Of a stretch of 35,956 nucleotides of DNA, positions 288 through 29,842 are shown piece after piece. Source of the stretch: Xenorhabdus japonica (GTDB lineage: Bacteria; Pseudomonadota; Gammaproteobacteria; Enterobacterales; Enterobacteriaceae); NCBI RefSeq assembly GCF_900115195.1, contig NZ_FOVO01000034.1:1-35956 (forward strand), given 5' to 3'. A program made the position numbers and the translations under genes. The notes below the pieces were generated by a model. That model did no database searches. It worked only from the letters and a program-made list of their open reading frames with translations, and was not told the origin of the DNA. Position 1 is the first letter of the stretch; each line of letters opens with the position of its first letter.

Positions 288-1286
288 ATGAACGTAACTA
301 ACACCAGTAAATTGTTAGCCGCTACTCTGTGTCTCGCAACCTCGTATAGCTACGCAGATAGTGAACGTCCACTTTTTTCATTGACCATGTCAGAATCCGG
401 CGTTCAGAAAACGAATAATGATGGTAGCTTATCCCGCTCTACCAAATCTGAATCGCGTATTCTTCCAATTTGGGGTGATGAAGCTCGCGCGAAAGGTTAC
501 GACCTGCCTGAGCCGTTTGGTGTTAGTTATGGTTATATAAATATGCGACAGGATGTTGTTGTGGATAGCATTAAATTTCAGTTCACCAATCCAATGTATA
601 AATTCTTCGAAAATACTAAAATTAATGCTGGTGATACCCGAGAAAAAAGTGAAACCCATATGTTGAAATTAGACACATGGGTTCTACCTTTCTTAAATGT
701 GTATGGTGTATATGGAAAAACCAAAGGTACATCAAAAACTAACCTAGACAGCATTTATCTACCTCCACAAATCTCTATATCAGGTGAACCTGCATGGGAA
801 AACATTCCTTTCGAACTGAACTTCAAAGGGAAAACCTTTGGTGGTGGTGCAACCCTTGCTGGCGGTTACAACCAATTTTTTGCCACATTAGATGCTAACT
901 ATACCCGCACAAATCTGGATATTTTAGACGGAAACATTAGAGCATTAGTTATCACCCCCCGCGTTGGTTATGAATTTGTTTTCGAACCGCTGCTAGCTGG
1001 ACAAGGAAATACTAAGGTTCAAGTCTGGGTAGGCGCTATGTATCAAGATATTACTCAACGTTTTAAAGGAGATGTCAGCGGATTAAATTTACCACCTGAA
1101 CTCGCACTATTTGAGACGATCAAAAGCCAAACAGAAATTAAATTCGATGTAAAACAACATCTTGCCCATAAATGGAACAATACTGCGGGCGTTCGCGTCG
1201 AAGTTACCCGTAATTTTAACGTATTATCTGAAGTCGGTTTCGGCAACAGAAACAGCTTCTTTATTTCCGGTGAGTTCCGTTTTTAA
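288..1286 (+). CDS. Uncharacterised outer membrane beta-barrel protein
   Basis: The 332-residue product starts with a clear Sec signal peptide (residues 1-23, ending SYSYA). The mature part has alternating polar and aromatic segments and ends in Phe-Arg-Phe, the terminal aromatic signature of outer membrane barrels recognised by the BAM complex. I do not recognise a named family. An AGGAAG motif lies about 12 bases upstream of the ATG, a little far for a strong ribosome site. The TAA stop shares its last A with the ATG of the next gene (TAATG), so the two are translationally coupled. It is the first of three envelope genes. An outer membrane location is well supported; substrate and role are unknown. 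Confidence 0.8.
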   Translation: MNVTNTSKLLAATLCLATSYSYADSERPLFSLTMSESGVQKTNNDGSLSRSTKSESRILPIWGDEARAKGYDLPEPFGVSYGYINMRQDVVVDSIKFQFTNPMYKFFENTKINAGDTREKSETHMLKLDTWVLPFLNVYGVYGKTKGTSKTNLDSIYLPPQISISGEPAWENIPFELNFKGKTFGGGATLAGGYNQFFATLDANYTRTNLDILDGNIRALVITPRVGYEFVFEPLLAGQGNTKVQVWVGAMYQDITQRFKGDVSGLNLPPELALFETIKSQTEIKFDVKQHLAHKWNNTAGVRVEVTRNFNVLSEVGFGNRNSFFISGEFRF

Positions 1287-2437
1287 TGTTTGATCTCACA
1301 ATATTCAAAAGGCTGGTGATTTCCAGCCTGCTTATTTTTACCGTTTCATCAGCACACGCTGATATCTTGCCTGATCGGCAAAAAATTGATGGTTGGTTAA
1401 ACGAATTAGGCGGCAGCAACCATTTTGATGACCGCAAGAAAATTGACTGGGGGGTACTACCCGGCCCTTTTTACACCCCTGAAATGGGTGTGGGGATTGG
1501 TGTTGCCGTGGTTGGTTTATACCGCCCAGACAGTTCTGATCACATTAGCCAGACATCTTCATTGGGGCTCAGTGGTTTTGGATCATCAACCGGCGCATTT
1601 GGCCTGAATTTCACCAATTATAATTTTCTTGCCAACGATCAATGGCGGTTATTTGTTTCCGGTACACTGAATAACACTCCAACTTATTATTGGGGCAAAG
1701 GCTATAATGCCGGTAAAGATAATAGCAATAAAGAGAAATACCATTCGCAGGAATTTGATATTCGTCCCCGCTTTCTTTATCGCGTCACCGATGCCACTTA
1801 TATGGGATTAGGCTGGAATTTTTCATCCATCAACGCCAGTAATCCAGATATCGGTGCAAAACGCTATTTTGATCAATCCGTTGGCGGTCGCTCCGTAGTA
1901 AGTTCCGGTGTAAGTGCCTACTTTAGTTATGACACGCGGGACTTCTTGCCCAATGCTCAGCATGGGCAGGCATTTGAGATTGTTTATACCTATTTTTCCC
2001 CTGAGTTGGGTAGCGATCACCGTTTCCATACTACGCAATTGCAGTTTTCAACCTATCACCAGTTATCTGAAAAAATGGTTCTGGCCTTTGATAACTATGC
2101 CCGTTTCAGTGCAGGCGATGTGCCGTGGAATCAGTTATCACTACTCGGCAATGGTCAGCGGATGCGCGGATACTATGAAGGGCGTTATCGCGATAACAAC
2201 ATTTTCACATCACAGTTAGAATTAAGACATAAACTTGACTGGCGCCACGGTGTAGTCGGTTGGGTAGGCACTGGCACATTGGGAAATACCCCTTCACAAT
2301 TGGGGACAAAACATTGGCTTCCTTCTGTTGGTGTTGGCTATCGTTTCGAGTTTAAGCCACGCATGAATATCAGATTAGATTTTGGTGTCGGTAAAGACAG
2401 TACGGGGTTCTACTTTCAGGTCGGGGAAGCGTTTTGA
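1286..2437 (+). CDS. Omp85-type (BamA/TamA-like) barrel protein without POTRA domains
   Basis: The product has 383 residues and a signal peptide of about 25 residues (ends SSAHA). The rest reads as a beta-barrel with features of the Omp85 C-terminal domain. These include an N-terminal barrel segment with PGPFYTPEMGVGIG near residue 59, an RMRGYYEG motif matching the V/M-R-G-F/Y lid-loop signature, and a C-terminal Phe. The mature length of about 358 residues leaves no room for POTRA repeats, so this is a barrel-only family member. BamA and TamA insert or translocate envelope proteins. Barrel-only relatives are less understood and may handle a specific partner, possibly one of the two neighbouring envelope proteins. 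It overlaps the following gene by four bases. Confidence 0.8.
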   Translation: MFDLTIFKRLVISSLLIFTVSSAHADILPDRQKIDGWLNELGGSNHFDDRKKIDWGVLPGPFYTPEMGVGIGVAVVGLYRPDSSDHISQTSSLGLSGFGSSTGAFGLNFTNYNFLANDQWRLFVSGTLNNTPTYYWGKGYNAGKDNSNKEKYHSQEFDIRPRFLYRVTDATYMGLGWNFSSINASNPDIGAKRYFDQSVGGRSVVSSGVSAYFSYDTRDFLPNAQHGQAFEIVYTYFSPELGSDHRFHTTQLQFSTYHQLSEKMVLAFDNYARFSAGDVPWNQLSLLGNGQRMRGYYEGRYRDNNIFTSQLELRHKLDWRHGVVGWVGTGTLGNTPSQLGTKHWLPSVGVGYRFEFKPRMNIRLDFGVGKDSTGFYFQVGEAF

Positions 2438-7718: not shown

Positions 7719-8996
7719 CTATCCCTTTTTCCTGATAATCCGACGACGTTTATTAAACAGATCCGGCAATATCGTTTGTGATACGCACTGCCACTCAATT
7801 TTATCGATATCAACACCCTGTTTGACAAAATAGTCTGACAGCGCTGATTGGCATTGCTGGAGAATCTCAATGGCACAATCACCTTCTAATTTCAACAACA
7901 ATTCTGTTTGCGTGAGTCGATAATCACTCGTCAGCGGCAGGGTATTGGCTATAATCCGTGAACAAGGATCGGCGAAAACACTCACTATTTCCCCGTCAAA
8001 CGCAGGTAAAATTAACTGATCATCACTACGCCCTTCAACGCGCTCTATCGCCAATGCTGGATTGCCACAAGCACATGGGGTTTTCTTCACCACCAAAATA
8101 TCATCAAGCTGATAACGCACAATTGGCTGAGATTCCCGTGTAAAATCAGTAATGATCGGGTTAAAACGGGATTCATCAATCCATTTTGGCTCTATATGGA
8201 GAAATTCTTCATTAAGGTGCAGGGTTCCATGCAAGCAAGTACACGCCAAGAAACCTTCTGTTGCCTGATAAATTTCTCCCACTTCCCTGAATACGTTCTG
8301 CAACAATTGACGATCCTGCGGCTCCAGCACTTCTGCCACTGAGATCACTTTCGCTGGTAACAAGGACACTTCACCTTGTTGAATTTTCAAGGCGAGCGCC
8401 CGCAGTACTTGAGCAGGAGCCACGATAATCGTTGGTTTATACTCTGCCAACGCTTGCACTTGCTGGTTAAAATCAGCAAACAAATCAAAAAAACGGAAGG
8501 ATATCCAGTGATTATGAACGCTGTCGTAGAGATTGTTTCCTGCCCGTAAAAACAGCGCTACCCGCTCACCGTGAAATAAACCGTTCGGCAGCATTTTGGC
8601 GAGCATAGTTCCAGCCCAAATACTCCGCTCTTTAGGGCTGATAACGAAAATCCCCCGCTGCCCTGATGTGCCCGATGACATTCCAACGCTGAATTTACCG
8701 ACCGTTGGTTTGAAATCGCGTGACTGTTCGCTCAATCTCGCGCACTCCAAGAGCGCATCACGCTTGAGACCTGCCGTATTCATCCGGTCGAAATTTTCCA
8801 TCATGACGGCTTTATTCATGAGCGGATATTCCGCCAACGGTAAATCACTATATGAGGCAAAATAAGGGCTTTTCGCCAGCACCCTGAGCTTGAATTTCAC
8901 TAATTCTCTCGATTGATGTTGTTCAAGCTGCTGTTGGTTGGAAAATTTCCACTGTTTTTTGGCTCGCCAATAGTACCAAAGCGTTTTAAGTATCAT
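7719..8996 (-). CDS. PaaK/F390-synthetase-like adenylating enzyme
   Basis: The 425-residue protein belongs to the phenylacetate-CoA ligase/coenzyme F390 synthetase branch of adenylate-forming enzymes. The phosphate loop is SSGTSG (107-112), followed by YQATEG (243-248), RYQLDD (294-299), a Cys-Ala-Cys-Gly knuckle (308-311) and EGRSDD (321-326). It should activate a carboxylate as acyl-AMP, passing it to CoA or using it internally. The acceptor is unknown, and F420 chemistry is unlikely in this organism. It is the last gene of the operon and overlaps the upstream gene by four bases. In the OleABCD pathway the same slot is held by OleC, an acyl-AMP-forming beta-lactone synthetase from a different branch of the superfamily, so analogous chemistry is possible but unproven. 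Confidence 0.8.
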   Translation of the reverse strand: MILKTLWYYWRAKKQWKFSNQQQLEQHQSRELVKFKLRVLAKSPYFASYSDLPLAEYPLMNKAVMMENFDRMNTAGLKRDALLECARLSEQSRDFKPTVGKFSVGMSSGTSGQRGIFVISPKERSIWAGTMLAKMLPNGLFHGERVALFLRAGNNLYDSVHNHWISFRFFDLFADFNQQVQALAEYKPTIIVAPAQVLRALALKIQQGEVSLLPAKVISVAEVLEPQDRQLLQNVFREVGEIYQATEGFLACTCLHGTLHLNEEFLHIEPKWIDESRFNPIITDFTRESQPIVRYQLDDILVVKKTPCACGNPALAIERVEGRSDDQLILPAFDGEIVSVFADPCSRIIANTLPLTSDYRLTQTELLLKLEGDCAIEILQQCQSALSDYFVKQGVDIDKIEWQCVSQTILPDLFNKRRRIIRKKG

Positions 8997-9799
8997 TCCA
9001 AATCTCCCTCATGGCATAGCTGGATAGGAATCTGCTTTTGGTCAATTTGGTGCAATTTATTCAATGTTTCGTAATAGGCGCGGCTGTCATCCATAATGAT
9101 ATTCGCCAACTTTGCAGGTCCACGCAGTTTACGGTAGTTACTTGGTGACCAAGCCGCATCTCCCGCCAACAATACCCAACCCTGTTCAGTCAATACACAA
9201 AGGCCGAGGTGCCCCGCCGCATGACCGGGCAGTGGAACAATAAACATCTGCTTCTGGCTCTCTGGCACAGCATAACCTTCACCCAATACCGCCAATTCTT
9301 CTGGTAGCGGGCTGGTTTCAAATCCTTCATAAAAACAGGTTCTGGATTCAAAATCTTCTGGGATTAATCCCCGTACAAATGCTTTTTGCAGCGCAGCAAT
9401 ACCTCGTAATTTGCGGGTTTGCTGCCAGCCTTCCCCCGAACAGATGAATTTGGCCTGCGGGAAATCCCGCAAACCAGCGATATGATCACCATGAAAATGA
9501 GAAATAATGATGCCATTAATATCACGCGCTTGGATGCCTGCTTCTTTTAGCTGCATCACCAATGAATCTTTGGTGTCAAAGTAGACTGGAGTGACTGTGC
9601 GATATAACCGAATAACCCCACTACGGGTATGATCGTAAAAATGGCTGGCATAACCGGTATCGAGTAGCCAACGTTTATCATTGCACTCCAGCAACCATGC
9701 ACGAGCCGGAAATTTACATATGCGAAGACTGGCACCTTTCAGTGCCATGCAGCCAGGATGAGTGCAGTATCCTACTTCAAAAACACGCATCTTAACCAT
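8993..9799 (-). CDS. Metallo-beta-lactamase-fold hydrolase
   Basis: The 268-residue protein carries the full dinuclear zinc set of the MBL fold. The motif HFHGDH is at 101-106, His193 lies in PGHAAGH, Asp214 in GDAAW and His263 in the C-terminal Cys-His-Glu. Overall it resembles the AiiA/lactonase-like group, which opens lactones, rather than true beta-lactamases. There is no signal peptide, so it is cytoplasmic. It overlaps both neighbours (8 bases upstream, 4 downstream), so it is made together with the synthase, reductase and adenylating enzyme. In this setting its substrate could be a lactone or thioester made by the operon. That is inference; the metal site is seen directly. Confidence 0.85.
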   Translation of the reverse strand: MVKMRVFEVGYCTHPGCMALKGASLRICKFPARAWLLECNDKRWLLDTGYASHFYDHTRSGVIRLYRTVTPVYFDTKDSLVMQLKEAGIQARDINGIIISHFHGDHIAGLRDFPQAKFICSGEGWQQTRKLRGIAALQKAFVRGLIPEDFESRTCFYEGFETSPLPEELAVLGEGYAVPESQKQMFIVPLPGHAAGHLGLCVLTEQGWVLLAGDAAWSPSNYRKLRGPAKLANIIMDDSRAYYETLNKLHQIDQKQIPIQLCHEGDLE

Positions 9800-10811
9800 G
9801 TGAACCTGCCTGCTGATCTCTCTGTTTCAACCAATTGGCTGTTAAATGAATGCCTTCTTCCATAGTATAAATCGGTGAATAGCCCAGCTCCTCCCGCGCC
9901 TTTGAGTTATCCAGTGTCATGGAATAATAAGCCGCCCCAATACCGTAACGAGTCAGCAACGGCTCTTTTCGGGTGAGTATAGCCATTCCTTCCAATACTG
10001 CCGCAACGCCATACAGAAATGGATAAGGTAATGATTTTATTCGATAACCAAACTGCATCTCGTCAAATAACTGCCCTAAGGTCTTCGCCAGTGGTTGTGG
10101 TTGCTGATTGGTAATGTTATATATCGCCCCGCTTTGTAAACCTTCGCGTTGGGTCGCCAATGACATGGCATGGACAACATTCATGACATAAGTGAGATCT
10201 AAGGCATTCTTACCCCCAGCAGGCAAGGCCATAACACCTTTACTGGATTTAACCTGAGCCAACAAGCGCGGCAACAACACTCGGTCATGTGGGCCAAATA
10301 ACCCACGGGGACGCAAAATAATATAAGTTGTGTCTGGATAGCGGCGAATCAGTTTGAGTATGCACTCTTCCGCCAGGAACTTCGTTCGGGCGTAATCATT
10401 GGCGAAACGCTGGCTACGCTGATTTTCAGTAATATGCTGTTGGTGTGAAAAATTAAAATATACGGCTGGCGTAGAAATATGGACAAATCGCTGGATACCA
10501 CATATTCCTGCCGCCTGCGCCAACATATATGTCGCAGTCAAATTGATACGTTCAAACTCATCAGGATCACCCCAAGGAGAAGATTTGGCGGCACAATGCC
10601 AGACTGCATCACAATCAGACATCAACTCGATTGCTTCATCCACCGTTAGCGTCACCAGTTCAGCACGGCGAAATTTGGCTCCCAATTGAGTTAACAACTC
10701 CCCCGCCTGCGGATCACGCCCGGTCGCCACTACCTTCTCCCCACGCGATAACAGGTAATCAACAGCATTACGACCTAAGCCACTTGTTGCTCCAGTTACA
10801 AGAATTTTCAT
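9792..10811 (-). CDS. OleD-like NAD(P)-dependent reductase (extended SDR)
   Basis: This is a 339-residue extended short-chain dehydrogenase. The nucleotide motif TGATSGLG is at 6-13, the active Ser/Thr region HISTPAVYF at 111-119, and the catalytic Tyr140 and Lys144 in YARTK. The pattern follows the 3-beta-hydroxysteroid dehydrogenase/OleD group: HCAAKSSPWG (72-81), LRPRGLFGP, a DLTYVMNVVHA segment and the C-terminal YYSMTLDNSKAREELGY. OleD reduces a beta-keto acid to the beta-hydroxy acid in long-chain olefin synthesis. The same reaction on the product of the adjacent ketoacyl synthase would make sense. It overlaps the synthase gene by four bases (ATGA). Confidence 0.8.
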   Translation of the reverse strand: MKILVTGATSGLGRNAVDYLLSRGEKVVATGRDPQAGELLTQLGAKFRRAELVTLTVDEAIELMSDCDAVWHCAAKSSPWGDPDEFERINLTATYMLAQAAGICGIQRFVHISTPAVYFNFSHQQHITENQRSQRFANDYARTKFLAEECILKLIRRYPDTTYIILRPRGLFGPHDRVLLPRLLAQVKSSKGVMALPAGGKNALDLTYVMNVVHAMSLATQREGLQSGAIYNITNQQPQPLAKTLGQLFDEMQFGYRIKSLPYPFLYGVAAVLEGMAILTRKEPLLTRYGIGAAYYSMTLDNSKAREELGYSPIYTMEEGIHLTANWLKQRDQQAGSHG

Positions 10812-11806
10812 GGTCTTAAGATCATCTCAGTTAATGAAAGCCCAGCCGCCGTGCCAAGTAACATCACATAATCACGGCCATAATAGCGATCGGTAATCAT
10901 GGCTTCATGCAGAGCACTAGGAATTGATGCTGCGACCTGATTACCGCGATAACGATAAATATTCACAAATCGCTCATCCCTGATATTCAATCTCTTGCGA
11001 ATATGTTTCAGTCCCAAATGGCTTGCCTGATGAGGAACCACGGTGTCAATATCAGACATTTCAAGGTTGGCACTCGCCAGTACACGCTCGGTAAAGCCTT
11101 CAATTAATGAAGCAGTCAGTTTAAACAGTGGCTTACCCTGCATCTGGAACAGAAAATCACTATCTTCCATGCCCGCACGAAGATTCTTACGCGTTCCGCC
11201 AGCCCGGATTTCACATAATTCGAGGCCTTCTGGATAAGTCTCATGTTTATAAGTCACAATCCCGCTCTGCCCATCTCCTCTTTCGACAATCATACATGCC
11301 GCTCCATCACCAAAAATCAGTGAAGACTCCTGATGTGACCAGTCAATACCACGGGAGGCCATCTCTGCGGAGACAATCGCAATACGCCGATATTGTCTGG
11401 TCGCCAACAATCCACTGGCAACACTCAGAGCAGAGATAAAACTCACACAACTTGAATTAATATCAAAACAGGCAGTACCGACCTTTAATTGACTCTCTTT
11501 TAAAATATGTGCGGCGGAATAAGGTAAGGCTTGAATCGGAATTGCAGAAGCTGAAATCAGCAGATCAATTGAATTCGGCTGGATTTGATGTGTTTTTAAA
11601 GTATCATGTAATGCATCTACGGCTAATTTAGCTTGAGATGCCTGATAACCAGAATGATAACGATATTCTATTCCGGAATGCTTTTCTACAAAACCACTCG
11701 GTTTATTTAACTTCAAATCTAAATCGGATGAATACACTTTATTTTCTGGCAAAGCAACGCCAGACGCAATGATCTTTAATTGGATCAATTCATTTGAATT
11801 TTTCAT
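10808..11806 (-). CDS. Ketoacyl-ACP synthase III-like enzyme (FabH/OleA superfamily)
   Basis: The 332-residue protein is a thiolase-fold condensing enzyme. Cys120 in CFDINSSCVSF, His259 in VVPHQAS and Asn289 in RGNQVAASIP form the Cys-His-Asn triad of KAS III and OleA-type enzymes. The glycine-rich C-terminus LLGTAAGLSLTEMILRP is also typical. Primary fatty acid synthesis FabH normally sits in the fab cluster, and this copy heads a different operon, so it more likely condenses an acyl-CoA or acyl-ACP for a special lipid or signal. It is the first gene of a four-gene coupled operon. The upstream DNA has no gene for 1 kb and should hold the promoter. Confidence 0.85.
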   Translation of the reverse strand: MKNSNELIQLKIIASGVALPENKVYSSDLDLKLNKPSGFVEKHSGIEYRYHSGYQASQAKLAVDALHDTLKTHQIQPNSIDLLISASAIPIQALPYSAAHILKESQLKVGTACFDINSSCVSFISALSVASGLLATRQYRRIAIVSAEMASRGIDWSHQESSLIFGDGAACMIVERGDGQSGIVTYKHETYPEGLELCEIRAGGTRKNLRAGMEDSDFLFQMQGKPLFKLTASLIEGFTERVLASANLEMSDIDTVVPHQASHLGLKHIRKRLNIRDERFVNIYRYRGNQVAASIPSALHEAMITDRYYGRDYVMLLGTAAGLSLTEMILRP

Positions 11807-12766
11807 TTTATTATTACTTCCAAGTGTTAATTTTTTGTTTAAATTTATTATCAGAATATAAAGTTAGTTCTGAGTATAGGGTTAGATAAAATAAGTATTT
11901 ATCAGATAGTCGGTCAAACAGGAAGTAGATATTTATGATACATCATATTACTAAATTGAAATATCCAATACAGATGCATGAAAAATAAAATTTTTTCCCA
12001 TCTCACTATTTCGAGGCTATAAATTTTTTTTTAATGAAATTAAAGTACCATGAGATTTAATCATGGAGCTTGTTGTATTTATGTGAAATAAAGATAAATA
12101 TTTATTTACAAATAAACTATCTTAATTTAATCATAAGAAATAGTTTTATTAGTTTTTTATCTCGTTGAAAACTATTTAAATCCAATTATTCAAAGGAAAC
12201 ATCAATTAAATATAAATCCAATATTTTTGGTTATTTGCATCCTTAAATAAAATAAATAACCTCACTCATCAATGTATATATTTAAAAATAAAAACAATTA
12301 GAAGGTTACTCTGAATAATATATTGTTGTTCAAAAAATTATATCAATAAATCAAATGCTATTTGACAGAAAAATGGATGCTTATTAAACAAAATAAAGTT
12401 AAATTCAAATGCAATCAATTGAAAATAAAATTATTTTTAACTTTTGGTTATAATTTTATGTCCTAAAGATAAATTAGAAATGTTTTTATTCTGGGATAGA
12501 GAATTTTTATAAGGAGGCAAGCTTTGGCTTTAGAATAACTCTTTACTAGAGACAGCGAATTAAACATGTTCAATAAGTTAGAATCTGGTTAATCACCCGA
12601 CTAGACGAATTCAGAAAGTATTAATGGTGGCTCGATAGTTAAGCAGCTTTTTTGGAATTTTGCAAAACAGCCAATATTACGCCCCCAGAACAAAAACTAT
12701 TATCCGTTGGATAAGTTTCATCGTTTGGCATCGTAATCAAGTCTTTAAGGAATAATCCTTAGATAT
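11807..12766. other. About 1 kb of AT-rich DNA without a gene
   Basis: This interval between two minus-strand operons is very AT-rich, especially 11820-12480, and I see no protein-like frame. The right part (about 12500-12740) has a more normal base composition and a GGAGG sequence at about 12513. The only frame after it is seven codons long. This subregion could be a decayed gene or IS end, but I could not match it to anything. The left part must contain the promoter of the condensing-enzyme operon. Confidence 0.4.
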
Positions 12767-12790
12767 TAAAAGGGGAAGCAACTCCTCCCC
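12767..12790 (-). terminator. Rho-independent terminator of the pot genes
   Basis: Read on the minus strand, GGGGAGG and CTTCCCC (7 bp, one G-T pair) enclose a 5-base loop and are followed by TTTT then AATA. It lies 24 bases after the potD stop. This is a good intrinsic terminator for the polyamine transporter transcript. Confidence 0.75.
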
Positions 12791-12813
12791 CAATAACTTA
12801 ATTGAATTTCAGA

Positions 12814-20365: not shown

Positions 20366-23023
20366 CTATGGACAAAGAGCCGCAATCGCTTGGCGGGCAC
20401 CAACTTTCAGTAAGTTTTGATAGGCTTTGGTAACGTTATCGACAAATACACGGTTTTTTACTAATTTTTTACCGAAGATCGATTCAATTGATAGTAACGC
20501 TTCCACCACAGCAGCAGAATGGCCATATTCGGCATAAATAGCCGCAAAAGTTTCTTTTAATGGATCACGCACATCAATGGGTTGACCTTGTTCATCCACG
20601 CCACTGATATAACGCATCCAACCCGCCACACCAAGCGCTAAGTAGCGGTAATCTCTACCATAGTCACTATCCTGCACGAGATGCCATTCAATGGAGTCAA
20701 TCATGCGCTGTGGCAATTTCTGGCTGCCATCCATCGCAATTTGCCATGTCTGATGTTTTAACGCCGGATTAGTGAACCGTTCGATCAAGTTATCCGCATA
20801 GGCCACTAAGTCGGTATCTTCTGGCATCGACAATGTTGGGGCTTGTTCATTCAGCATTAGTGCATACACAGCCCGACGATAATCGGCATTTGTCATCGTA
20901 TCGGAGATATGCGCATAGCCACCCAAATAGCCTAAGTAAGCCAGAAATGAATGGGCACCATTTAACATGCGCAACTTCATCATTTCAAATGGTGCCACAT
21001 CGTCCACAAATTGCGCACCGGCAAGATCCCAATCTGGACGCCCATTCACAAAGTTATCTTCAATCACCCATTGGCGAAAAGGTTCGCAGGCAATAGCACA
21101 AGGATCTTCAACGCCCAGCCGTTGGGCAATTTCAGTTAGCGTTTCTGGTGTGGCAGCCGGCACAATACGATCCACCATCGTGCAGGGAAATGTCACTTGG
21201 TTTTCTATCCATTGTGCCAATTTTTCATCCTGCAAACGCGCCAGACTCAATATAGCCTCACGGGCAACATGCCCATTTTCCCGAACGTTATCGCACGATA
21301 AAATTGTCACAGAGGGTAGCTGGCGCTCAAAACGTAATCTTAAGGCCGCAGTGATATACCCTATGGCTGATCTTGGCACAGCAGGATTAGCAATATCTTT
21401 AATAATTAATTCATTATTGGGATCTAAATGCCCTGTCGCGGCATCGGTACAATATCCTTTTTCAGTGATTGTCAAAGAGATGATTGCGACATCAGGGTGC
21501 GCCATTTTTTCGATAATCGCCTGAATGCCATCAATTAATGGGTGCATCCCTTCTTTCATTGAACCAATAATTTTTAATGTGATCCCCTCCTGCCCTTTCT
21601 CTGCGACGGTATAGCGCATGGATTGTTTTTTTAGATTTTCAATCAGTGTGACACTCTGTTTTGACATCAGATTGACAGCACAAATCCCCCAATCACTGTC
21701 TGTTTGCTCTAATACATAATGCGTATAAAGCGCCTGATGCACCCGATGAAATGCACCGCACCCTAAATGCACTATACGGGAAGTCAGGCGTTTGGTTGTC
21801 CAACGAGGGCATGGGACAGAAGTTACCGCATTGACAAGATTTTTTTCCATGATGGCACGATGAATGCCCAACTCAAGGCCACGAATTTCAGCTAATCCTT
21901 TCAGGCGACCGATTGCTGAATAACCAGGGTTCGTTTTCTTTTTCAAATCATCAAGTATTTGATGACCATGATCAGGCCGCATTGGAATAAGGTGATTTTC
22001 ACCCGCTGCCAATCGGCGATGTTCTTCTTCTGCGACCGCTTTGATCACTTCATACATATCCACATCACCGGCAAGATGTGCCGCTTCGTGGAACGTGGAT
22101 GGGTTTTCTTCCCGTAGGGTTGAGCGTAAGTGGAGGAAATAGATACGGGAACCAAATAATTTGATCATCTTTACCAAATCATTATCCGCGCGCACGCCAT
22201 AAGATCCGGTGCACATCGTATAGCCGTTGGCATTACTGTCTACTGTTTCCGCTATCCAACGCATATCCTCTATTGTAGAAACAATGCGTGGCAGACCTAA
22301 GATCTCACGAGGGGGATCATCAGGATGCACGGCCATTTTGATGCCGATTTCTTCCGCAATCGGAATGATCTTTTTCAGAAAATAAGCAAAGTGCTCACGC
22401 AATTTGGCCTTATCAATGTCTGTATAACGTTTTAGGTGTTGGCGAAGTTGTTCTAAGGTATAGCCTTCCTCTGCACCAGGAAGACCAGCAATAATCGTGT
22501 TTGTCAGTTTTTGTTTTTCTTCTTCTGTCATTGAAGCGAAACGTGATTGTGCTTGCACAATTTCATCATCGGGATACTCTTTTTCTGCGGCAGGGCGTTG
22601 CAAAATGTGAATATCAAAAACGGCAAATTCTATTTGATCAAAACGCAACGCTTTTGAGCCATCAGGTAATTCATATTCGAGATCAGTACGTGTCCAATCC
22701 AGAACAGGCATAAAGTTGTAGCATATTGTTTTGATCCCGCAGGCAGCGAGGTTACGCAAGGTTTGTTGATAGTTTGCTATCCATTGATCGTACTCCCCTG
22801 TCTGCGTTTTGATATCTTCATGAATAGGAACACTCTCTACGACTGTCCACTCAAGTTGATTAACTTCAATCAGTGCCTTACGTTGTTCTATCTCTTCGAT
22901 AGACCAGACTCCGCCATTGGGAATATGGTGCAACGCCGTCACAATCCCTGTTGCTCCTGCCTGACGGATATCCGCTAATGAAACAGGATCTTCAGGCCCA
23001 TACCAACGCCAAGTTTGTTTCAT
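20366..23023 (-). CDS. uxuAB: UxuA-UxuB fusion: mannonate dehydratase / fructuronate reductase
   Basis: A single 885-residue frame contains two enzymes that are separate in E. coli. Residues 1-391 are mannonate dehydratase UxuA, with [44 protein letters not shown] and PMRPDHGHQ. From Met392 the sequence is fructuronate reductase UxuB of the mannitol dehydrogenase family, with [28 protein letters not shown] and catalytic Lys683, Asn688 and His691 in [10 protein letters not shown]. UxuB reduces fructuronate to mannonate and UxuA dehydrates mannonate to KDG, so the fusion joins consecutive steps. The joint has almost no linker and lies at a run of seven A (minus strand; plus positions 21840-21846). 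Met392 is where a separate UxuB would begin. A sequencing indel at the run must be excluded. Confidence 0.93.
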
Positions 23024-27746: not shown

Positions 27747-28463
27747 CTAAGAGAATTTATCTCCATAAGCCATTAAAAAGTTATCAGAAAAAGCTTCAGA
27801 TTCCACTAAACTATCAGGATCAAGCTTCTTACCAAATTCTTCTTCAATAATTTCTGAAACTATTTTCGGAATCTCTTGATATAATTCATAAATGGCATTT
27901 TCATGATCGGTAATTAGAGAATAAAAAGACTTACCATCAATTACCCTTATATCTTCACGGGCAGGCAAACGAACTTTTACCTGATTATCTGACGGAGTAA
28001 AAGGTTCATTATAGATTTTCTGGCCTTTAGGTAATACTTCTACATAATACCCTGTATATCCCGGTTTATCCTCAATTGCTTTCACTAAATCGCGATAGAT
28101 CTGAACCTTGTGATTTCCCTTTGTTGTATTGTGCTTGTTTTTGATTTCAGCTACCATTTTAAGCCTATCAGCAACAATATCTATTAGATTTCCAACAGGA
28201 AGATTCTCAACACCTGCAACGGATCCCATAATTTTCTCATGTAACGATCCAATAGCATTTTGTTTAGTTTTTTGAATTTGTCGTGCTTTTTCTTGCTGTA
28301 ACCAATCGTCAATACTTATACCTTGGATCAGGGCATCTATTGATGCCGAAAAACAATCAAGGGTATTTCTATAAAGATCTAACTTTTCCTGCTGAGCCTG
28401 ATATACAAGCTTAATATCTGACCTGATAGCGTCTTTTAACTTTTTCCTATTAAATGCCTTCAA
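27747..28463 (-). CDS. Eco47II-like type II restriction endonuclease
   Basis: The 238-residue protein matches the size and pattern of the Eco47II endonuclease family, which cuts GGNCC. A PD-(D/E)XK-type centre is visible at DIVADRLKMVAEIKNKHNTT (95-114), with Asp95, Glu106 and Lys108 as candidate metal and catalytic residues. KGNHKVQIYRDLV follows. The gene is divergent from the methyltransferase, with 146 bases between starts. Specificity is inferred from the family, so GGNCC is probable but unproven. The DNA is more AT-rich than the flanking metabolic genes, fitting horizontal transfer. Confidence 0.75.
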   Translation of the reverse strand: MKAFNRKKLKDAIRSDIKLVYQAQQEKLDLYRNTLDCFSASIDALIQGISIDDWLQQEKARQIQKTKQNAIGSLHEKIMGSVAGVENLPVGNLIDIVADRLKMVAEIKNKHNTTKGNHKVQIYRDLVKAIEDKPGYTGYYVEVLPKGQKIYNEPFTPSDNQVKVRLPAREDIRVIDGKSFYSLITDHENAIYELYQEIPKIVSEIIEEEFGKKLDPDSLVESEAFSDNFLMAYGDKFS

Positions 28464-28507
28464 AATAACCTCCTGACTTAAAAAAGAATATTATGAATCA
28501 AAAATTA

Positions 28508-28552
28508 AATCGATAAAATAAAAATAAAAAATCGATAAAAAAATAGTGGACC
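28508..28552. promoter_or_regulatory. R-M control region: direct repeats and a GGACC site
   Basis: AATCGATAAAA occurs twice, at 28508-28518 and 28530-28540, exactly 22 bases apart (two helical turns). GGACC at 28548-28552 fits the GGNCC target expected for this R-M system. Both lie between the divergent endonuclease and methyltransferase starts. Some type II methyltransferases control their own genes through N-terminal HTH domains or through methylation of promoter sites, so this may be a self-regulation switch. Confidence 0.45.
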
Positions 28553-28609
28553 TAAATAGAATAATTATGTATATTTAGACAGTAATTGGTAACTTATTGG
28601 AAGCGTCAT

Positions 28610-29842
28610 ATGTTTGATGTCCAGAATAATGAACACTTTAGCATAGAAGTATTGGCTGACATCCTGTCCCAATCCAAAACTACTATTGAATCTCGCATAC
28701 GTAAGGGAGAACTAATTATTAATTCTAAAACTGGGCTAATTCATCAAGCCCAAGTTTTACACCACCCTGAGATACAAGGCATTGTTAACTCAAGTTGGGA
28801 CAAAGAGTCCAAAATCACACCAAATCGTGAATACAATTTAGTTGAACTCTTTGCCGGAGGGGGGGGATTAGCGCTAGGTATGGAACAAGCCGGTTTAAAA
28901 AGCATTTTTCTTAATGAATTAGATAAACATGCATGTGCAACATTAAGATACAATCGCCCTAATTGGAATGTTGCTGAAGGCGATATCGGAAAAATAAATT
29001 TTAATCAAATAAAGGAAACAGTGGATGTATTAACAGGTGGATTTCCTTGCCAAGCATTTTCTTATGCAGGAAAAAGCCTGGGCTTTGAAGATACTCGCGG
29101 AACCCTTTTCTTTGAAATGGCTCGGGCAATCAAAGAGCTACAACCCAAAGTTTTTTTAGCTGAAAATGTTAGGGCATTACTCACTCATGATGATGGTAAA
29201 ACACTTTCTGTCATTAAAGATGTAATTGATGAACTAGGTTACGAACTTGTAGAGCCTAAGGTTCTAAAAGCAATTTTCTACAAAGTGCCACAAAAACGTG
29301 AGCGACTAATATTAGTTGGAATACGTAAGGATGTAGCATCAAAAGGCAAATTCCATTGGCCATCCCCTTATAAACGGGTAATGACATTAAGAGATGCATT
29401 TTTCGCTGGTGAGTTATATCAAAACGATGTACCTGAGTCGTTAGGACAAATTTACCCAAAACATAAACGCGAAATCATGTCTGTAGTTCCACAAGGAGGG
29501 TATTGGAAAGATTTACCTGATGAATTACAACGCGAGTACATGAAAAATAGCTATTTCTTAGGTGGTGGAAAAACTGGCATGGCTCGTAGACTATCTTTAA
29601 ATGAACCAAGCTTGACATTAACAACATCCCCAGCGCAAAAACAAACTGAACGTTGCCATCCAACCGAAACGCGCCCTCTCCAAATTAGAGAGTATGCTCG
29701 TATTCAAACATTCCCTGATGAATGGATATTTCAAGGTTCACTGACAGCTATCTATAAACAGATTGGTAATGCAGTGCCTGTTAATATGGCATTAGCATTA
29801 GGCCGCTCACTAGTCAGATTAATGAACAAAATTGAAAGCTAA
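28610..29842 (+). CDS. DNA C5-cytosine methyltransferase (M.Eco47II-like)
   Basis: I start at the ATG at 28610 (GGAAG six bases upstream), giving 410 residues. A frame to 28586 adds eight unlikely residues. The C5-methyltransferase motifs are in order: I in LFAGGGGLALGME, IV in GGFPCQAFS with catalytic Cys147, VI in AENVRALL, VIII in QKRERLILVG, and X in QIGNAVPVNMALA. The first 65-70 residues precede motif I and include a helix-turn-helix-like stretch LADILSQSKTTIESRIRKGE, which may bind the promoter. It should protect GGNCC sites from the neighbouring endonucleases. It is flanked by one endonuclease gene on each side. Confidence 0.92.
   Translation: MFDVQNNEHFSIEVLADILSQSKTTIESRIRKGELIINSKTGLIHQAQVLHHPEIQGIVNSSWDKESKITPNREYNLVELFAGGGGLALGMEQAGLKSIFLNELDKHACATLRYNRPNWNVAEGDIGKINFNQIKETVDVLTGGFPCQAFSYAGKSLGFEDTRGTLFFEMARAIKELQPKVFLAENVRALLTHDDGKTLSVIKDVIDELGYELVEPKVLKAIFYKVPQKRERLILVGIRKDVASKGKFHWPSPYKRVMTLRDAFFAGELYQNDVPESLGQIYPKHKREIMSVVPQGGYWKDLPDELQREYMKNSYFLGGGKTGMARRLSLNEPSLTLTTSPAQKQTERCHPTETRPLQIREYARIQTFPDEWIFQGSLTAIYKQIGNAVPVNMALALGRSLVRLMNKIES

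What the first reader, a model, noticed from the sequence alone, without database searches (positions are those of the whole stretch)
7719..11806. Four-gene condensing operon resembling OleABCD but with an MBL hydrolase and a PaaK/F390-type ligase
Four overlapping genes encode a KAS III-like condensing enzyme with a Cys120-His259-Asn289 triad, an OleD-like reductase, an MBL-fold hydrolase with a full zinc site, and a PaaK/F390-synthetase-like adenylating enzyme. Seen directly: the motifs and the 4-8 base overlaps. Known: OleA condenses acyl-CoAs, OleD reduces the ketoacid, OleC makes a beta-lactone and OleB (an alpha/beta hydrolase) removes CO2. Inference: this operon runs a related condense-reduce-activate sequence to a new lipid, lactone or signal, with the MBL enzyme replacing OleB or opening the product. 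A biosynthetic role in insect or nematode association would fit the likely host.
Basis: partly seen in the sequence, partly recalled or inferred. Interest (0 to 1): 0.85.

Follow-up and report, generated by a model that had tools for sequence, protein, structure and literature searches.

The report
Widespread orphan lipid-assembly operon
Four overlapping genes encode enzymes that look able to join, reduce, activate and release fatty-acid building blocks; related bacteria, including some E. coli, carry the same gene set, and its product is unknown.

Summary
In detail: four overlapping minus-strand genes (11806-7719; overlaps 4, 8, 4 bases) encode a KAS III, an OleD-like SDR, a lactonase-fold MBL hydrolase and a PaaK-fold adenylating enzyme (TIGR02304), with catalytic residues kept and strong purifying selection. 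The window is Xenorhabdus. The set is a real but patchily distributed unit: 55 of 59 loci picked by the ligase carry all four genes, in Pseudomonadota, Bacillota and Fusobacteriota; 671 of 5426 complete E. coli genomes hold most of a seven-gene version.

The OleABCD reading is only partly right. The synthase lacks OleA's base glutamate (Leu/Ile in 56 of 56) and scores highest, among solved structures, with MxnB/CorB, which join two acyl chains into pyrones. The reductase lies outside the OleD clade, though OleD is its closest named family. Ligase and hydrolase show no sequence match to OleC- and OleB-like proteins.

Recurrent partners elsewhere (desaturase, fatty-acid hydroxylase, PAP2, glycosyltransferase, ATP-grasp, GNAT, Rieske) suggest a fatty-acyl product with interchangeable tailoring. 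Two Burkholderiales genomes appear to split the pathway between KAS-ATPgrasp-GNAT-Rieske and desaturase-SDR-MBL-ligase-hydroxylase. Substrates and product are unknown; my open-access paper searches found no description of the set.

The parts
10808..11806 (-). KAS III condensing enzyme (332 aa), FabH-derived, closest solved relatives MxnB/CorB; triad Cys120-His259-Asn289
   Evidence: ORF; PDB best hits MxnB 155.7, Aquifex FabH 137.1, CorB 125.4 bits; profile; trees; residues
9792..10811 (-). extended SDR reductase (339 aa), closest named family OleD (2-alkyl-3-oxoalkanoate reductase)
   Evidence: NF042422 159.2 bits, cut-off 580; invariant S113/Y140/K144; tree outside the OleD set
8993..9799 (-). 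metallo-beta-lactamase-fold hydrolase (268 aa) with complete two-metal site; fold of the AHL-lactonase/4-pyridoxolactonase type
7719..8996 (-). PaaK-fold ANL adenylating enzyme (425 aa), TIGR02304 'F390 synthetase-related protein'
11807..12770 (.). AT-rich intergenic stretch in front of the operon. Some other Xenorhabdus loci have the operon's PAP2 phosphatase gene upstream of the KAS; no trace of it in this window
   Evidence: PAP2 upstream of KAS in 6 of 15 named Xenorhabdus loci (2 of the 15 have under 400 bases upstream), best tblastn E in the window 0.1; PAP2 in 8 of 30 genus genomes, none in G000
12771..12791 (-). terminator-like hairpin after the upstream potD gene, so the operon may have its own promoter
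   Evidence: consensus scan, 7 terminator-like sites found against 4.7 (sd 2.2) in shuffles; promoter-like sites 13 against 14.7

Best explanation
The operon encodes the core of an uncharacterised fatty-acyl (lipid) biosynthetic pathway. The KAS loads an acyl group on Cys120 and makes a C-C bond to a malonyl- or beta-ketoacyl-thioester; like MxnB/CorB it has no OleA-type base, so it needs an already acidic or decarboxylating nucleophile. The SDR reduces the resulting 3-oxo group to 3-hydroxy. The lactonase-type MBL opens a lactone or cleaves a (thio)ester of the product to give the acid. The PaaK-type ligase adenylates a carboxylate for transfer to CoA, an amine or an alcohol. In other bacteria the same core is extended by desaturases, hydroxylases, PAP2 phosphatases, glycosyltransferases, or ATP-grasp/GNAT/Rieske enzymes that diversify the lipid; Xenorhabdus keeps the four-gene core, sometimes with PAP2. 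SHOWN: gene set, conservation, catalytic residues, folds and families, neighbours. INFERRED: substrates, order of steps, a lipid product.
For: Catalytic residues of all four enzymes are conserved and the genes are under purifying selection. All four co-occur in 55 of 59 loci. 38 of 44 non-Xenorhabdus loci carry at least one accessory gene looked for; since the accessory references came from 17 of these loci, the fairer count is 22 of the other 27. Over the 44: ATP-grasp 14, PAP2 10, FA_hydroxylase 10, FA_desaturase 10, Rieske 10, GT4 7, PAP2_C 6, GNAT 6, sulfotransferase 3, GT21 2, DUF3419 1 (families). The two Burkholderiales genomes without KAS beside SDR-MBL-ligase hold an operon-type KAS elsewhere with ATP-grasp, GNAT and Rieske. 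KAS profile: MxnB 322, CorB 309.5, best FabH 264.7, PqsD 168, OleA 116-124 bits. PMC5724707 (passages) reports two acyl tunnels in MxnB; PMC4578411 (passages) reports Val in place of the base glutamate in MxnB/CorB. Folds.
Against: No substrate or product is known. A FabH-derived KAS may simply do decarboxylative malonyl condensation; the window KAS is only 32.6% identical to MxnB, 29.7% to CorB and 24-28% to five FabHs. MxnB/CorB attach in an unresolved position, with long-branch warnings, in trees with few reference enzymes, and PMC4578411 places them inside the FabH clade. Ten well-conserved columns side with FabH against MxnB/CorB, 14 the other way. Six of 44 non-Xenorhabdus loci have no accessory gene of those looked for, nor has this window. 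No ACP or exporter is among the four genes. The split pathway in Burkholderiales could also be two remnants of two clusters. A lipid product rests mainly on neighbours in other species.
Confidence: 0.6

Rival explanations
1. [quoted passage not shown]
For: OleD is the closest named family of the SDR; the number and kind of steps look alike; the MBL has a lactonase-type fold, so it could open a beta-lactone.
Against: OleA's glutamate is Leu/Ile in 56 of 56; OleA is far from the KAS (26.9 bits to the OleA of L128; 116-124 bits by profile); SDR outside the OleD set; no sequence match of ligase to an OleC-like or MBL to an OleB-like protein; the tailoring partners elsewhere are not expected for an olefin.
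Confidence: 0.1
2. A PQS-like small signal route: the ligase makes an aryl- or acyl-CoA, KAS III extends it with malonyl as PqsD does, the SDR reduces and the MBL acts as a thioesterase as PqsE does.
For: The same three enzyme kinds (ligase, KAS III, MBL) meet in pqsABCDE (recalled); the best structural matches of the ligase include aryl-acid ligases.
Against: The PqsD entry scores 168 bits against 322 for MxnB; the MBL model is nearest to lactonases, PqsE not being among the rows shown (not decisive); desaturase, FA hydroxylase and PAP2 neighbours fit a membrane lipid better.
Confidence: 0.13
3. A duplicated FabH-type start module: the KAS makes 3-ketoacyl-ACP from an unusual starter and the SDR a 3-hydroxyacyl chain, feeding ordinary lipids with an odd chain.
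For: KAS is FabH-derived with 178-200 bits to FabH models; Cys-His-Asn fits malonyl decarboxylation.
Against: Below the cut-off of each of the 11 NCBIfam models matched; separated from five FabHs 100/100 when OleA is left out, 90/60 with it; does not explain ligase, MBL, ATP-grasp, GNAT and Rieske partners.
Confidence: 0.12
4. A catabolic operon that activates an acid, opens a lactone and degrades the product.
For: The MBL has a lactonase-type fold and PaaK itself is catabolic (recalled).
Against: A KAS III with intact triad is normally a synthetic enzyme; no thiolase or hydratase among the four genes; neighbours elsewhere are lipid-tailoring genes.
Confidence: 0.05

Closest known systems
TIGR02304 'F390 synthetase-related protein' (NCBIfam)
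   Same: The ligase is a full member, 570 bits against a cut-off of 251.9.
   Different: The name reflects similarity; my searches found no paper on the function of the family.
MxnB / CorB, pyrone-forming ketosynthases of myxopyronin and corallopyronin
   Same: Closest solved relatives of the KAS by profile; Cys-His-Asn triad; hydrophobic residue where OleA has Glu; invariant Gln92 shared with both and with none of four FabHs and the OleA compared.
   Different: 29.7-32.6% identity; the operon adds a reductase, ligase and MBL.
OleABCD olefin pathway
   Same: Reductase is OleD-like; condense-reduce-activate logic.
   Different: KAS not OleA-like, MBL instead of OleB, SDR outside the OleD clade, ligase without sequence match to an OleC-like protein.
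PaaK-type ANL ligases (PaaK1, NatL2, AjiA1, ClxA)
   Different: 17-20% identity over the aligned part; far below the PaaK cut-off (25.1 of 646.3 bits).
AHL lactonases and 4-pyridoxolactonase (MBL fold)
   Different: 20-25% identity; far below the curated cut-offs (57.4 of 325 bits at best).
pqsABCDE (PQS synthesis)
   Same: Ligase, KAS III and MBL together (recalled).
   Different: An SDR is added; KAS nearer MxnB than PqsD.

Membership tests
TIGR02304 F390 synthetase-related family | Score above the curated cut-off (251.9 bits) | tested here: met
   570 bits
OleABCD | OleA base glutamate reaching into the partner's active site | tested here: not met
   Leu/Ile in 56 of 56 rows, Glu in the OleA control from L128
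OleABCD | Reductase in the OleD equivalog | tested here: not met
   159.2 of 580 bits; separate side of a 100/98 branch
OleABCD | OleC-type ligase | tested here: inconclusive
   No phmmer match at E 10 to a protein of L129 that I took as OleC-like by its place beside an OleD-like gene and its size, without a family scan
OleABCD | OleB alpha/beta hydrolase in the set | tested here: not met
   The hydrolase is MBL-fold; no alpha/beta hydrolase among the four genes
Housekeeping FabH | Above FabH model cut-offs and the genome's only KAS III | tested here: not met
   177.6 of 292.1 and 199.8 of 249 bits; a second KAS III at G000:C66 that groups with E. coli FabH
MxnB/CorB pyrone-forming KS | Triad plus hydrophobic residue at the glutamate position | tested here: met
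   the literature rule from PMC4578411 (passages)
MxnB/CorB pyrone-forming KS | Falls in one clade with MxnB and CorB | tested here: inconclusive
   Same side of the branch from FabH (90/60 with OleA; 100/100 without); position inside unresolved, long-branch warnings, few reference KS
MxnB/CorB pyrone-forming KS | Joins two acyl chains; two substrate tunnels | not testable with these tools
   Needs a dimer structure and an assay
PaaK CoA ligase | ANL fold of PaaK type | tested here: met
PaaK CoA ligase | Phenylacetate-CoA ligase equivalog | tested here: not met
   TIGR02155 25.1 of 646.3 bits
Quorum-quenching lactonases (AiiA, AttM) | Lactonase-type MBL fold with metal ligands | tested here: met
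Quorum-quenching lactonases (AiiA, AttM) | Above curated cut-off | tested here: not met
   54.9 of 375 and 47.9 of 390 bits
PQS pathway | PqsD-type KAS and PqsE-type MBL | tested here: inconclusive
   PqsD entry 168 bits by profile; PqsE not among the PDB matches or fold rows of the MBL

The most novel reading that the evidence does not exclude
The four genes are the core of an undescribed class of bacterial two-chain lipids: KAS fuses two fatty-acyl chains through a C-C bond (as MxnB/CorB do), the SDR makes the 3-hydroxyl, the lactonase-type MBL opens a lactone intermediate, and ligase, ATP-grasp and GNAT attach a head group or third chain, giving ceramide- or diacylglycerol-like lipids with exchangeable heads (sugar, phosphate, sulfate, amino acid) in E. 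coli, Fusobacterium and nematode symbionts alike.
Probability: 0.25. Interest if true: 0.88.

Novelty: new variant of a known kind. Interest (0 to 1): 0.58.

Why it matters
A core of four catalytically complete enzymes, kept together in three phyla and present in about one in eight complete E. coli genomes (671 of 5426 with at least 80% of the seven-gene stretch), has no product that my searches could find. Its small size and intact form in Xenorhabdus, with no desaturase or hydroxylase beside it, make it a good place to find the core product by deletion and by expression in a laboratory strain.

Tried and rejected
Membership in OleABCD, housekeeping FabH, and the PaaK, AHL-lactonase and OleD equivalogs was tested and at least one defining feature of each was not met. 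Insect-association as the purpose was dropped because of the host range. A search for a fatty-acid hydroxylase in the window's genome found none, nor a PAP2 of the operon type. PDB searches with the GNAT, ATP-grasp and FA-hydroxylase partners gave nothing significant. Promoter matches are at the level of shuffles. PqsE is not among the rows shown for the MBL, which excludes nothing.

In print: searches for F390 synthetase-related protein, TIGR02304, F390 synthetase, CoF synthetase, putative adenylate-forming enzyme, and combinations of partner names showed no paper on this gene set in the open-access library; subscription papers are not held, and searches returned mostly unrelated papers. Of the 10 papers holding 'F390 synthetase' I looked at passages of four: PMC2649909 proposes glycerol attachment for such a gene in D. 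psychrophila; PMC9823363 lists a kiwifruit-canker mutant with reduced virulence score; PMC5467263 and PMC5501837 only list the annotation (the latter, in an Acinetobacter, among genes changing with phenol). The others were seen as listings. Whether these proteins belong to TIGR02304 was not checked.

The plain Foldseek searches with the ligase model were not accepted; only VIA-align second looks ran, which cannot exclude families they do not list.

Counting limits: the 59 loci were chosen by me among loci with a ligase. L045 (an archaeal relative at 30%, no KAS, SDR or MBL match), the short stretches L001-L022, L046-L054, and L078-L108 were left out unless extended later. For the f44 genomes I extended 14 of the 33 with a match. 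In the neighbour table SDR or MBL is not shown at L058, L066 and L074, and SDR, MBL and KAS at L060; I take the first three to be lost to longer overlapping ORFs, and for them the four-gene call rests and, for L058 and L066, on the public annotation. The trees leave out near-identical or partial rows. That the PDB rows counted as OleA and PqsD are those enzymes is partly recalled (their titles say 3-oxoacyl-[ACP] synthase III and PQS biosynthetic enzyme; 3S23 is named OleA in PMC5724707).
Full report
WHAT IS THERE. The window lies in a Xenorhabdus genome (nearest named loci X. anantnagensis and X. yunnanensis, ligase 96% identical; contig G000:C80). Four minus-strand ORFs run from 11806 down to 7719 with overlaps of 4, 8 and 4 bases. 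They are a KAS III, an extended SDR, an MBL-fold hydrolase and a TIGR02304 adenylating enzyme. A terminator-like hairpin follows the upstream potD gene at 12791-12771 (such sites are only mildly more frequent here than in shuffles), and about 960 AT-rich bases separate it from the KAS start. Downstream lies a convergent O-acetylhomoserine sulfhydrylase gene.

IS IT A REAL UNIT. Over 15 named Xenorhabdus loci the median dN/dS is 0.078, 0.059, 0.061 and 0.071 for KAS, SDR, MBL and ligase. In the genus, 21 of 30 genomes hold the ligase, and the short stretches fetched for all 21 show MBL and part of the SDR beside it. Of 59 loci chosen by the ligase, 55 have all four genes on one strand within 6 kb. 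The misses are L041 and L042 (no KAS nearby), L065 (no KAS) and L060 (ligase alone); an archaeal relative, L045, with none of the other three was not among the 59. The loci cover Enterobacterales, other Gamma-, Beta- and Alphaproteobacteria, Bacilli, Lachnospiraceae and Fusobacterium. Distribution is patchy: even draws gave a match in 3 of 369 genomes of the class, 10 of 398 of the phylum and 4 of 297 of one other order, but 33 of 143 in another. In E. coli 672 of 5426 complete genomes match the seven-gene version and 671 hold at least 80% of it in one place. In the one chromosome read it lies between narI and tRNA-Tyr genes: KAS, SDR, MBL, ligase, PAP2, FA_hydroxylase, FA_desaturase. Proteins similar to the MBL, KAS and ligase are also listed from Serratia, Cronobacter, Citrobacter and the P. 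syringae group, without gene context.

THE ENZYMES. KAS: Cys120, His259 and Asn289 are invariant in 56 of 56 rows. The column of OleA's base glutamate is Leu (31) or Ile (25); it is Glu in the OleA taken from near an oleD gene, Phe or Ile in four FabHs, and Val in MxnB and CorB. Gln92 is invariant in the family and in MxnB and CorB, and absent from the four FabHs and the OleA. By profile the best solved relatives are MxnB and CorB (322 and 309.5 bits; best FabH 264.7; PqsD 168; OleA 116-124). With the single window sequence the order is MxnB 155.7, Aquifex FabH 137.1, CorB 125.4. Trees put the family and MxnB/CorB on one side and FabH on the other, with weak support when OleA is included (90/60) and full support without it (100/100). 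The place of MxnB/CorB inside is unresolved, and the program warns of long branches. Of columns at least 70% conserved in 36 family rows, 14 are shared with MxnB and CorB and no FabH, 10 with at least four of five FabHs and neither MxnB nor CorB, and none with OleA alone.

THE NEIGHBOURS. Among the 44 non-Xenorhabdus loci, 38 carry at least one of the accessory genes looked for, within about 8 kb and on either strand: ATP-grasp 14, Rieske 10, PAP2 10, FA_hydroxylase 10, FA_desaturase 10, GT4 7, PAP2_C 6, GNAT 6, sulfotransferase 3, GT21 2, DUF3419 1. Six have none. The references came from 17 of these loci; of the 27 others 22 carry at least one, with GT21 and DUF3419 in none of the 27. The most telling case is a pair of Burkholderiales genomes. 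Their loci DES-SDR-MBL-ligase-FA_hydroxylase-PF10118 (with PAP2 labelled in one of the two) lack a KAS, but both genomes hold an operon-type KAS elsewhere (269.1 and 263.3 bits; their other KAS III matches score 123-130) in a run KAS-ATPgrasp-GNAT-Rieske. This suggests that the two accessory sets serve one pathway, in 2 of 2 genomes tested, though remnants of two clusters could look the same. In Xenorhabdus the operon's PAP2 is upstream of KAS in 6 of 15 named loci (2 of the 15 have under 400 bases upstream). It is found in 8 of 30 genus genomes, all 8 among the 21 with the ligase, and not in the window's genome. No FA_hydroxylase was found in the window's genome.

HOW IT MOST LIKELY WORKS. 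C-C bond formation by KAS, reduction of the 3-oxo group by the SDR, lactone or ester opening by the MBL and carboxylate activation by the ligase is the simplest reading of four complete enzymes. That the product is a fatty-acyl lipid is inferred from the tailoring genes elsewhere. Chain joining is possible, since the closest characterised synthases join two chains and form lactones (PMC5724707 and PMC4578411, passages read), and a lactonase-type partner would fit; neither is shown. PMC4578411 itself places MxnB and CorB inside the FabH clade. The order of MBL and ligase could be the reverse. Against the reading stand the modest identities and the absence of accessory genes here.

VERDICT ON THE FINDING. 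Observation confirmed; interpretation partly supported. It is a widespread, patchy orphan biosynthetic core rather than an OleABCD relative.

LEADS. P. syringae-group ligases about 61% identical to this one are listed, and a transposon mutant of P. syringae pv. actinidiae in a gene called coenzyme F390 synthetase is given virulence score 2 among 91 reduced-virulence mutants (PMC9823363, passages). Whether that gene belongs to this family was not tested.

Noticed in passing
window 20366-23023 (-): One 885-aa ORF holds a mannonate dehydratase (UxuA) joined to a mannitol-dehydrogenase/UxuB-like half, beside glucuronate isomerase, a KDG-kinase-like gene, a TRAP transporter and a GntR regulator: a hexuronate cluster with an apparent fusion.
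   Followed up: no
window 27747-29842: Eco47II-type restriction enzyme next to a C-5 cytosine methyltransferase.
   Followed up: no
L142 3001-9882 (E. coli chromosome): Seven-gene version of the operon between narI and tRNA-Tyr; matches in 672 of 5426 complete E. coli genomes; no function found in my paper searches.
   Followed up: partly
L140 and L141: Operon-type KAS with ATP-grasp, GNAT and Rieske genes at a second locus in two Burkholderiales genomes; preceded by a small ArsR-like ORF (judged by eye, not tested).
   Followed up: partly
L060, L065 (large Pseudomonas plasmids): The ligase alone, or MBL plus ligase, lies on two plasmids of 972 and 904 kb without the KAS beside it, with an ATP-grasp-like match nearby (weak in L065).
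   Followed up: no
window 1286-2437 (+): Weak match to the Omp85 outer-membrane family (85.4 of 200 bits) between two ORFs without NCBIfam matches at E 1e-10.
   Followed up: no
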